Below the pieces are notes generated by a model. It ran no database searches. It was not told the origin of the DNA and was given only the letters and a program-made list of their open reading frames with translations. Of a stretch of DNA of 64,000 nt, positions 17,521 to 22,179 are shown piece after piece. The position numbers were made by a program, and so were the translations under genes. The stretch comes from Phanerodontia chrysosporium (taxonomy: Eukaryota; Basidiomycota; Agaricomycetes; Polyporales; Phanerochaetaceae): NCBI GenBank assembly GCA_001910725.1, contig MJGA01000016.1, forward strand, positions 496,001-560,000, read 5' to 3'. Position 1 is the first letter of the stretch; every line of letters starts with the position of its first letter.

Positions 17521-19176
17521 ATGTCTTCCGTCGTCGAGACGCGAAACGTGCCGCCTTCACCTAGTCCGGCTCCGAAGCTCAAGGAACCGGAGAAGGAAGA
17601 GGTCCCTGCTGATATCAACATCCCAGACAACTATGTCTCCTGGACGCTCCGTAACCAAAAGCCTCGGCCGCCAATCACCCTCGACAACCTCCTGGACAAT
17701 ATCCAATGGTTGAGCCTCATCATCCTGACCAGTATTCCGGCCATTTCTATCTACGGCTTTTGCACGACGAAGCTGCAGTGGCAGACCTTTGTTTGGAGTG
17801 TCATCTACTACTTCATCACTGGTCTAGGTGCGTAGTCCTTCGTCTGCTGTGCACCATCATGTTTCGAACCGTCATCCAGGGATTACCGCCGGCTACCACC
17901 GCCTCTGGGCGCACCGGTCATACAATGCCTCGAAGCCATTGAAGTACTTCCTTGCGATGGCCGGTACGGGTGCAGTGCAAGGTTCCATCAAGTGGTGGTG
18001 CCGCGGCCACCGCGCGCACCATCGCTACACCGACACCGACCTCGATCCGTACAATGCGCACAAGGGCTTCTGGTACTCGCACCTCGGCTGGATGATCCTC
18101 AAGCCGCGGTACAAGCCCGGAGTTGCCGATGTTAGCGATTTGAGCAAGGACCCAGTCATTCGGTGGCAGCATCGCTGGTACATCTGGCTGATCCTCGGTT
18201 GCGGCCTGGTTTTGCCCACAATGGTCGCCGGCCTAGGCTGGGGCGACTGGAGGGGTGGCTTCTTCTTCGCCGGCGCCGCTCGTCTGTGCTTTGTCCACCA
18301 CGTAAGTAGCGCCTCGTCCACGCGCAGGCCTTGCGCTGACCGCTCTATAGTCCACGTTCTGCGTCAACTCGCTCGCACACTGGCTCGGCGAGACGCCGTT
18401 TGACGACAAGCACACGCCGCGGGACCACTTCATCACCGCCCTCGTGACCGTCGGCGAGGGCTACCACAACTTCCACCACCAGTTCCCAATGGACTACCGT
18501 AACGCCATCAAGTGGTACCAGTACGACCCGACCAAGTGGTTCATCTGGGTCTGCTCGAAGCTTGGTCTCGCAAGCCATCTCAAGGTCTTCCCTGAGAACG
18601 AGGTCAAGAAGGGCCAGCTCACAATGCAGCTCAAGCGCCTCCGTGAGACGCAGGAGGGCCTCGCATGGGCTCCGGATGTCCAAGAGCTGCCAGTCATCAG
18701 CTGGGAGAGCTGTACGTTATCATTTGTCCATGCCGTGCGTTAACAGTGGCTAACCTACATCATAGACCAAGAGCAGGCTATCAAGCGTCCACTCATTGTC
18801 ATCGCAGGCTTCATCCACGACGTCTCCGACTTCCTCGATGAGCACCCTGGCGGCCGCCACCTGCTGGTGAAGTACATCGGCAAGGACGCGACAACGGCGT
18901 TCTTCGGCGGTGTCTACGATCACTCGAACGCTGCCCACAACGTACGCATGCTTTCTGTCACTGCGTATGCTCAGCCACGCTAACCTATCCTACGCATAGC
19001 TGCTCTCGATGAAGCGTGTCGGTATCCTCCACGGTGGCATCCAGCACGGCCTGCAGGACAAGACGATCCCCCCTGCGCAGCGTCTCCGCATTGCGCGGTA
19101 CAACGAGCTTCGGGGTTCTGGCTACCATTCGTCTGGCACCTCGGCTGTCTCGGATAACGAGGGTATGCTCGGCTAA
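17521..19176 (+). CDS. OLE1: Stearoyl-CoA (delta-9) desaturase with C-terminal cytochrome b5
   Basis: Introduces the cis-9 double bond in palmitoyl- and stearoyl-CoA in the ER membrane, drawing electrons through its own cytochrome b5. Five exons; the first intron is 17828-17879, and later introns start at 18301, about 18711 and about 18942. Two membrane segments precede the first histidine box HRLWAH. The second box is HRAHHR and the third GEGYHNFHHQFP, giving the eight iron ligands. NSLAHWLGETPFDD lies between boxes two and three. The fused b5 domain has the heme motif DEHPGGRHLL and a second heme ligand region YDHSNAAHN. Length and order match fungal Ole1 fully. Its TATA promoter and CT-rich leader fit high expression. 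Essential in most fungi; no defect is visible. Confidence 0.97.
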
Positions 19177-19865: not shown

Positions 19866-22179
19866 CTAAGCAACGAGCTTACTCGATTGCAGCTGCCGCC
19901 TCACAATCGTGTCCTGAACTGTTCACTGTAAGTTTCGGCGGCAATGCGACGTGCAAGTCAGCTCACCATCAGACAAGATATGAGAGGTCGTTCTAGTGTC
20001 CTGCAAGGACATTCAGCGATACTAGCAACAGTGTGCTGGCGCAGATCACATACCGTAACACTCGTAAAGTGGCAGTAAAACGGTCTCGATATGGGCGAGT
20101 GTTCTTTGTGTATCTGCGAGAACTTACGTCGCAGATCTGCAGGTCCCATGGTGATGAATTTCTGTACATGTCTGAGGTATTGAAATACGCACATGTTGAG
20201 GTGTTCTGATAATCATTCGGACGGTTTCCATATGATACGATGTAGTCACTAAGCTGGATGCCAGCGGCGAGCTTCTGCTTCAGGATATCGATTTTGTTCA
20301 AGAAAAGTACGACGCTTGTTTTCGCGAGCAGCTGATTTGACACGATTGACTTCCAAAGCAGGACAGAATCTTCCTGGAACGAAGGACGGCGAAGTCAGGC
20401 AAGTTTCGTACATGCCGAAAGCAGACTGCTCACAAGACGATTGACCATTGGATCTTCCTCGAGCACCTGGTCGAAACAGCTAATCGGCGCCAGGAAGAGG
20501 ATTGCGCTGAGGATCATGTCAGCATTGCCGCTGAACGGTGCAGGGACGTGCAACATACTCCATGTCATCGAAGAAGGGCGCCCATGCAGCTTCGAGATTT
20601 CCATCAACGACGCTTCATAGAACAAAGTTAGGCATTCATACCTCGCTAAATCAAGGTTAGGTTGGCCAGAAAGATCAAGGAACGAGCACTTACTAGAGAC
20701 CTATGACCGCCGACGTCATATACTCGCCACTCCCGACTCCCGGCGACGAGACCTGAGAAATTCTCTATGAGCTCCTTCAGGAGCCGTCGAACCAAACCTG
20801 AGTACACCAGCGACGTACCATCCTTGACTTGGAAGCGGTACTCCGAAACGCCAAGGGTCTTCAAACGCGCTCGCAGAATATCGTCTGAGCCGCGCGTGTT
20901 AGCGTCAGCGAGTGAGCACGCTTGTGTATCTCACCATCCGTTGGCACGTATCGTAATTCAGTGACCCGGTCCAGCGAGTCGAGGAAACTGGTTCGCATAT
21001 TAGCTGGGGAGCCATAGACGTGCCAGTATACACTTACAACCCCGGCATTTCTTGCAGGCGCAGTTTCTGATAAGCAAGGACCTCATGCACGACTGGATCG
21101 TTCCAGAGCATAATCATGTCTTCGGCGCACGCATGGATGATTCGTCCCGGATCCTGTGACTCACGCATTAGCACGCATCCCTATGATAGCATGAGCGACG
21201 TACGTCCGGGTCGTTCCAGTCGATGGCATCGATATCTGTCTCAGAGCTATTCCGTTTGCCTGCTATCCTGCTGAACATCGTTTTCCACACGAAATGAGAG
21301 TTGACAGCAAGCTCCTTGTCCCTGGCAAGCGCATCGGGTGCATTGGTAAGCTGAGTGAGGCGCGTGGCTTCCTGCTCAGTGTTGCCGGCGAGAGTGAGTC
21401 TGCGAATGAGCACCTCCTCAACCTGCAGAAGGGGCAGCAGACGGAGCCGCAGCTTTAAATGTTCGGCCGTGAGATGCGGCAGCTCGGCAGAGGGTGACGC
21501 CCTGGAGGACGAGGGCCGCGAGTCTGGAAGAGACCTGTGGGAAGACCGAGGTGACGATGTGGCAGACGGGGCCTGAAGCGCATGGACTTCCGCGATGGCC
21601 TCGAGAATGAGCCGGATTGACCGGACAACGTTGAGCTGGATCACCGCCCGCCATGACGCGCGTTCGGCGTGGAAAGCCTGGAAATGGGGATCGTGATCGA
21701 ACAACCTGACGATCCGTCTAAGGCACAGACCTTGGGAGTGTGCAGCAACTGGAAGTCTAGTAAAGTTTCAGCTTGCATGCTCATTGGGTGCGTGCGAGAA
21801 TGTAACTCACTCTTCAACGTGGTCGATTTGCCTTATAGAGAGGGTATGATGAGTGACGGTATCGGTCTGCGAGCATCGTGTTGCGTACCTGATTCGCTCT
21901 GGCCTGTACCGCGATGTGAGCATGAGCAAGGTACCTCTCGGTACCTATCTGCCACCTCCATGACACACACGACCACTTACCCAACAAGAGCATCTTCATA
22001 GGCCTCGGACCCTTTCTCTCCATCCTAGCCTGCTGTTGCAGCTCTTCATCTATAGCGTCGGAGATGCGCTTGGCTTCTGCCTCAGCGAGCATGCGGGCCT
22101 CTCGCTCCGCTGGAGTTTCGTTTGGAGGAGGTGCGAGCACCCGTGATAGCGGATCATCGTCATTAAAGCCTGGAGGCAT
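19866..22179 (-). CDS. Large, divergent G-protein alpha subunit
   Basis: A heterotrimeric G-protein alpha chain: a GTPase switch acting downstream of seven-helix receptors at the membrane. I count about sixteen exons. N-terminal extension MPPGFNDDDPLSRVLAPPP has no MGxxxS myristoylation signal. P-loop LLLGQSESGKSTTLKNFQ is spread over exons of 15, 21 and 26 nt. The helical domain (21677-21204) carries a Ser-rich insert (SATSSPRSSHRSLPDSRPS). Switch I is RYVPTDDDILRARLKTLGV, keeping the Arg finger and Mg-binding Thr. Switch II is DVGGHRSLRAAW, with His where the catalytic Gln should be; part is encoded by a 4-nt exon (20642-20645). Base recognition is FLNKIDIL and TSVT. The C-terminus is VQDTIVRRQLQSSKLVA, without the usual GLx end or a Cys for ADP-ribosylation. 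Such long fungal-specific G-alpha types are known in mushrooms; partners are not known to me. Confidence 0.9.

What the first reader, a model, noticed from the sequence alone, without database searches (positions are those of the whole stretch)
20642..20645. A 4-nucleotide exon in switch II of a G-alpha gene
On the minus strand the exon ending GGHRSL (20694) is followed by GTAAGT...GATTTAG, then CGAG, then GTATGA...CTCGAAG, then an exon starting CTGCATGGGCG. Only if CGAG is kept as an exon does the protein read GGHRSLRAAWAPFF in frame. The Arg and Ala it supplies are the conserved positions of canonical GGQRSERKKW. Skipping it shifts the frame. Flanking introns are 48 and 52 nt, normal for this genome. 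Exons of this size are among the smallest that splicing is known to define.
Basis: partly seen in the sequence, partly recalled or inferred. Interest (0 to 1): 0.9.

Follow-up and report, generated by a model that had tools for sequence, protein, structure and literature searches.

The report
Four-letter exon in mushroom G-protein gene
A signalling-switch gene of a wood-rotting fungus really does contain an exon only four letters long: spliced-message data contain it, and gene models from other mushrooms carry traces of it, often because annotation software misread it.

Summary
The 4-nt exon is real. CGAG lies at 20645-20642 (-) between GT-AG introns of 48 and 52 nt. A public protein from contigs of at most 1,770 nt matches the window gene at 466/466 residues through 16 exons spanning 2,224 genomic nt, so the contig is spliced; it reads GGHRSLRAAW. 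No single deletion, whatever its boundaries, gives that peptide; CGAG is the only open two-intron GT-AG solution. Of homologues listed, 45 of 45 from short transcript-like contigs read Arg; 48 of 195 other records show V-[TPSA]-x-W, the signature of the wrong donor. A G-alpha group whose copy here lacks the exon shows it in 0 of 120. A paralogue has a 4-nt exon, CGAC, at the same place. Stepwise, intron-defined splicing is the likely mechanism (inferred). Four-nt exons are known (human MPC1), so this is a new, apparently deeply conserved and often mis-annotated member of a known kind. Species other than this one were judged from proteins, not DNA.

The parts
19866..22179 (-). G-alpha gene, coding part: 16 coding exons, 15 introns, ATG at 22179, stop TAG at 19868-19866 (495 aa predicted; residues from 22092 on backed by P0001)
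   Evidence: Spliced alignment of P0001, 466/466 identical; start and stop; Pfam G-alpha
20694..20752 (-). 59-nt upstream exon ending ...DVGGHRSL (phase 0)
20646..20693 (-). intron 1 at the site, 48 nt, GTAAGT...TTTAG, branch-site-like CTAAC 11 nt before the end
20642..20645 (-). 4-nt exon CGAG: Arg codon plus first base of Ala codon
   Evidence: only open two-intron GT-AG parse, introns of at least 35 nt; spliced-contig protein P0001
20590..20641 (-). intron 2 at the site, 52 nt, GTATGA...CGAAG, branch-site-like TTGAT 14 nt or CTAAC 38 nt before the end
20559..20589 (-). 31-nt downstream exon, (G)CT GCA TGG GCG CCC...
20688..20689 (-). GT of the rival donor (gtgctc): the single-intron alternative would start at 20689, 4 nt inside intron 1
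   Evidence: donor score -2.22, below all 21 reference donors
21889..21903 (-). 15-nt exon in the P-loop of the same gene
21811..21831 (-). 21-nt exon in the P-loop of the same gene
21731..21756 (-). 26-nt exon of the same gene

Best explanation
CGAG is a genuine, normally included 4-nt exon of a divergent mushroom G-alpha gene. It encodes the conserved switch II arginine (Arg208 in G-alpha-i1 numbering, recalled) and one base of the next codon. Shown: it is present in spliced message of this gene, and a paralogue in the same genome has the sequence for a 4-nt exon at the same place. Inferred: the exon is ancestral to two related G-alpha groups of Agaricomycetes, made when a second intron landed 4 nt after an older one. 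It is spliced by intron definition, one short intron after the other, most likely intron 1 first (strong donor GTAAGT, branch-site-like CTAAC 11 nt before its end). That joins CGAG to the upstream exon and leaves ...CGAG|GTATGA as an ordinary donor. Annotation programs that cannot place a 4-nt exon slide to the next GT 4 nt on, and so write Val-Thr/Pro/Ser/Ala for Arg-x.
For: P0001 (longest contig 1,770 nt) equals the window gene at 466/466 residues through 15 introns over 2,224 genomic nt, so it must be spliced; it reads SLRAAW. No one-deletion product gives that peptide; one two-intron GT-AG solution exists. 45 of 45 proteins known only from lgn/jgi contigs read Arg. Of the 195 other listed records, 92 read Arg, 2 Thr, 48 V[TPSA]xW, 48 otherwise, 5 had no recognisable site. 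Control group: 118 of 120 Arg, 0 of 120 V-type. Paralogue L015: CGAC between GTGCGT...TATAG and GTGAGT...CCAG gives RSQRPTW as in orthologues. Tree built without the switch II columns: window-gene and L015 groups fall on one side, the L012 group on the other, support 1.0. The two introns (48, 52 nt) lie inside the 48-138 nt range of 21 spliced-contig-backed introns.
Against: Both acceptors at the site score below all 21 reference acceptors, and the GTATGA donor below all 21 reference donors; the score is a 4-position matrix trained on those same 21, so it is rough and favours them. The contig behind P0001 was seen only as a protein, so its bases and read depth are unknown. Other species were judged from proteins; none of their DNA was read. 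Splicing order is not tested. The 53 of 195 records that are neither Arg, Thr nor V-type (48 other, 5 without site) were not explained one by one; some may be true differences (for example LLAAW in P0101 and P0118).
Confidence: 0.94

Rival explanations
1. One 100-nt intron with donor 20689 (GTAA|gtgctc); the protein reads GGHRSLVTAW and CGAG is intron sequence.
For: In frame, length-preserving, GT-AG; 48 of 195 listed non-transcript records in the two groups have this kind of reading.
Against: Same-gene spliced-contig protein reads LRAAW; 0 of 45 transcript-like proteins read V; donor score -2.22, below all 21 references; V-type absent (0 of 120) in the group whose copy here has no microexon.
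Confidence: 0.03
2. CGAG is a regulated cassette: it is skipped or a flanking intron retained in some conditions to switch the G-alpha off.
For: Skipping or retention truncates the protein (373, 319 or 329 residues against 466); splice sites at the site are weak.
Against: None of the 45 transcript-like proteins lacks Arg at the site. This is weak: the searches look for near-full-length proteins and would miss truncated products.
Confidence: 0.12
3. Sequencing errors or a pseudogene make the frame look split.
For: None beyond the oddity of the structure.
Against: 466/466 match to a spliced contig; the same arrangement in an independent paralogue, seen on more than one contig of the assembly.
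Confidence: 0.01

Closest known systems
Human MPC1 exon 2 (4-bp constitutive microexon, PMC9929638; abstract and passages seen)
   Same: 4 nt, not a multiple of three, constitutively included, conserved across species
   Different: Long flanking introns and exon definition from a fragment of 67 bp upstream to 6 bp downstream; here introns are 48 and 52 nt, so intron definition is more likely
Arabidopsis APC11 and plant VPS55 1-nt exons (PMC4674806, PMC8831610; abstracts and passages seen)
   Same: Ultra-short exon, conserved, missing from reference annotations; the APC11 authors favour intron definition with stepwise removal
   Different: Plants, 1 nt; here a fungus, 4 nt, in a G-alpha
Phanerochaete chrysosporium P450 microexons (PMC1184071; three passages seen)
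   Same: Closely related kind of fungus, introns mostly 45-55 bp, exons of a few codons
   Different: Shortest exon reported there is 6 bp; conservation in other species was not covered in the passages seen
Trichoderma virens Xlr2 microexon (PMC11121469; abstract, passages and part of the reference list seen)
   Same: Fungal microexon
   Different: A switch-like, regulated microexon in a transcription factor; here regulation could not be tested

Membership tests
Constitutive microexon | Exon of 30 nt or less bounded by functional splice sites | tested here: met
   4 nt, GT-AG on both sides, unique parse, present in a spliced contig's protein
Constitutive microexon | Included in essentially all mature transcripts | tested here: inconclusive
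   45 of 45 transcript-like proteins of two groups include the Arg; no read counts available
Constitutive microexon | Same position in a homologous gene | tested here: met
   Paralogue L015, DNA, without its own same-species transcript; orthologues in other species only through proteins
Recursive (stepwise) splicing | Splicing intermediate with only one of the two introns removed | not testable with these tools
   No RNA reads
Heterotrimeric G-protein alpha subunit | Pfam G-alpha domain over the protein | tested here: met
   E 3.3e-99, profile 1-333 of 333
Heterotrimeric G-protein alpha subunit | Switch II GGQRSxRxxW with catalytic Gln (role of Gln recalled) | tested here: not met
   GGHRSLRAAW: His in place of Gln; Arg and Trp kept. 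It is therefore called a divergent G-alpha homologue; GTPase activity is not claimed

The most novel reading that the evidence does not exclude
The 4-nt exon with unusually weak splice sites has been kept in two G-alpha groups across mushroom orders because it works as a built-in splicing checkpoint: only molecules from which two adjacent introns are removed in order encode a full-length switch II, so the amount of active G-alpha is set by splicing efficiency.
Probability: 0.1. Interest if true: 0.8.

Novelty: new member of a known kind. Interest (0 to 1): 0.57.

Why it matters
It shows that a spliceosome working with ~50-nt introns can define a 4-nt, frame-breaking exon, and suggests that such an exon has survived through much of mushroom evolution in a core signalling gene. 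About half of the non-transcript records listed for these two G-alpha groups (101 of 195) do not read the expected Arg/Thr-type sequence at this site, against 2 of 113 in the control group, which matters for anyone modelling these proteins or training gene finders. The V-[TPSA]-x-W signature is a cheap way to look for hidden 4-nt exons from protein databases alone. The site is also a compact natural substrate for asking which of two introns goes first.

Tried and rejected
Single-intron readings: all GT/GC-AG introns of at least 35 nt over the site were listed; only donor 20689 gives a sensible protein, and the spliced-contig protein rejects it. Non-canonical single junctions: no deletion with any boundaries yields the observed peptide. 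Sequencing error or pseudogene: rejected by the exact spliced match. Chance: 0.27% for a 4-nt Arg exon in shuffles, so the pattern alone would not have sufficed.

Literature searches for a G-alpha microexon, fungal microexons and mushroom G-alpha families showed no report of this exon among the titles and abstracts listed; one search listed no paper; most subscription papers are not held. The search for 4-nt exon wording listed four papers, none on fungi by title; one is the plant microexon paper PMC8831610. DNA of orthologues in named mushrooms was not reached with the collections on hand. Switch II of the paralogue on contig C2 (L021, L025) and of several weaker places was not resolved.

Full report
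What was claimed and what is there. The finding says that CGAG, on the minus strand at 20645-20642, is a 4-nt exon in switch II of a G-alpha gene. The sequence is as described: exon to 20694, intron 20693-20646 (48 nt, GTAAGT...TTTAG), CGAG, intron 20641-20590 (52 nt, GTATGA...CGAAG), exon from 20589.

It holds that only CGAG keeps the frame. Listing every GT/GC-AG intron of at least 35 nt over the site shows one good rival: a single 100-nt intron that starts 4 nt further in (donor 20689, gtgctc), which gives GGHRSLVTAWAPFF, in frame and of the same length. Frame alone therefore does not decide. By shuffling, an open in-frame 4-nt exon arises by chance in 3.2% of such stretches, and one with Arg in 0.27%.

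What decides. A protein search with the hand-spliced gene returned P0001, known only from contigs of at most 1,770 nt (source tag lgn, which I take from memory to be the Logan assemblies of public sequencing runs). A spliced alignment places all 466 of its residues on the window without a mismatch, through 16 exons and 15 introns spanning 22092-19869, that is 2,224 nt. A 1,770-nt contig cannot hold 2,224 nt of genomic DNA, so the contig is spliced message. It reads GGHRSLRAAWAPFF. No single deletion with any boundaries gives that peptide from this DNA, and the only open two-intron GT-AG solution (introns of at least 35 nt, middle exon 1-30 nt) is CGAG. The limit: only the protein was seen, not the contig's bases or depth. 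A second case of the same kind: P0241 (contig 1,828 nt) matches the gene at locus L012 at 499 of 499 residues compared (its first 8 left out, as they lie at or beyond the end of the locus), over 2,111 genomic nt.

Homologues. I read switch II in the 120 listed proteins of each of two searches: with the window gene (120 of 1,827 hits listed) and with its paralogue L015 (120 of 1,843 listed). Proteins known only from lgn/jgi contigs (longest contig 1.5 to 6.8 kb) were counted as transcript-like: 26 and 19; 9 of these 45 have a longest contig over 2.5 kb, for which splicing is less certain, and only P0001 was checked against its own genomic DNA. All 45 read x-R-x-x-W. The 195 others, named public records that are mostly gene models, split into 92 Arg, 2 Thr, 48 V-[TPSA]-x-W, 48 other and 5 without a recognisable site. 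The V-type is what the +4 donor predicts: GTN-X|GT joined to CT.. or CG.. gives Val, then Thr, Pro, Ser or Ala for X = A, C, T, G. The observed counts are Pro 22, Thr 13, Ala 7, Ser 6. Many of the 'other' records show small insertions or losses at this place, some of them with the Arg (such as LVRAAW); they were not explained one by one, and a few may be true differences.

Control. A third search used L012, a paralogue in the same genome with one intron at the site and no 4-nt exon. Of its 120 listed homologues (of 1,889 hits), 118 read Arg, 0 read V-type, 1 was garbled and 1 had no site; 7 of 7 transcript-like ones read Arg. So the V-type reading is not a general annotation error at this position. 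That the other species' members of this control group lack the exon is assumed, not seen.

Paralogues in this genome. The G-alpha search of the whole genome (39.0 Mb, 145 contigs) gave 65 exon-level matches. Switch II was read in the 30 fetched loci, which overlap and include duplicate contigs. The window gene has both introns with CGAG. L015 and its copy L016 have both introns with CGAC (52 and 61 nt), giving RSQRPTW as in orthologues, though the locus also allows other open parses; L017 has the same letters. L012 and L014 have only intron 1. L003, L010 and L013 have none there, nor do three canonical G-alphas (L001, L002, L004). L011 appears, by eye and without a transcript, to have a 9-nt exon CGCGGCCAG with a GC donor, followed by an intron at the intron 1 position. 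The C2 gene (L021, L025) and several weaker places were not resolved. A tree of 362 proteins (360 listed, plus L012 and L015), built without the switch II columns and rooted at the midpoint, puts the window-gene and L015 groups on one side and the L012 group on the other (support 1.0; the L015 group itself 0.667). The simplest history is that intron 1 is older and intron 2 landed 4 nt after it before those two groups split. Members come from Polyporales, Agaricales, Boletales, Hymenochaetales and others (orders assigned from genus names, recalled). Midpoint rooting, the absence of the other paralogues from the tree and the lack of foreign DNA make this an inference.

How it probably works. Four nucleotides can hardly seat both splicing ends at once, so stepwise removal by intron definition is likely, as argued for the 1-nt exon of Arabidopsis APC11 (PMC4674806, passages). 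Here intron 1 has a strong donor (4.78 against 1.1 to 5.1 in 21 reference introns) and a branch-site-like CTAAC. Intron 2 has a weak donor (0.58, below all 21), and both acceptors are below all 21 (-0.75, -1.25 against -0.3 to 3.3). The rival +4 donor scores -2.22. These scores come from a 4-position matrix trained on the same 21 introns, and the branch motif occurs in 13 of those 21, so both are rough guides. I propose intron 1 first. The weak sites count against effortless inclusion and leave room for regulation; skipping or retention would truncate the protein at 373, 319 or 329 of 466 residues. No evidence of regulation was found, and the data could not show it well.

Protein. The product is a divergent G-alpha. 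The CGAG arginine aligns with the second Arg of GGQRSERKKW. The Gln of that motif is His here; in the list it is His 49, Gln 41, Ala 28, not found 2 of 120.

Compared with what is known. Human MPC1 has a constitutive 4-bp exon (PMC9929638, abstract and passages); plants have 1-nt exons and pervasive misannotation of microexons (PMC8831610, abstract and passages). P. chrysosporium P450 genes have exons down to 6 bp (PMC1184071, passages). A 2024 paper says that characterisation of microexons in fungi is relatively limited (PMC11121469, passages). I saw no report of this exon in the listings. It is a new member of a known kind, notable for being fungal, frame-breaking, in a core signalling motif, apparently conserved across orders, and often hidden by annotation.

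Noticed in passing
L015 (G000:C54:798179-802024), about 140 nt after its CGAC exon: The paralogue seems to carry a second ultra-short exon, 6 nt TCGATG (introns 50 and 54 nt), giving WVPFFDDVDAII; 15 of 19 transcript-like homologues read VDA there (4 not matched by the pattern); of 101 other records 67 read VDA and 12 only A.
   Followed up: partly
L011 (G000:C62:221501-225229): A further G-alpha paralogue appears to have a 9-nt switch II exon CGCGGCCAG followed by a GC-AG intron; read by eye, no transcript checked.
   Followed up: no
20703-20705 (codon CAT in GGHRSL, 20694-20711) and homologues: The catalytic switch II Gln of G-alpha (role recalled) is replaced by His, Ala, Ser or Thr in most listed members of these mushroom G-alpha groups (Gln in 41, 0 and 0 of 120; site not found in 2, 3 and 1), which may mean altered GTPase activity.
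   Followed up: partly
21889-21903, 21811-21831, 21731-21756: The P-loop region of the same gene is split into exons of 15, 21 and 26 nt, all contained in the spliced-contig protein.
   Followed up: yes
G000 contigs C7, C54, C107 and C88, C106: Near-identical copies of the same G-alpha genes on different contigs suggest uncollapsed haplotypes or recent duplications.
   Followed up: no
18351-18743: An open frame beside the G-alpha gene looks like part of a fatty-acid desaturase (EGYHNFHHQFPMDYRN; judged by eye).
   Followed up: no
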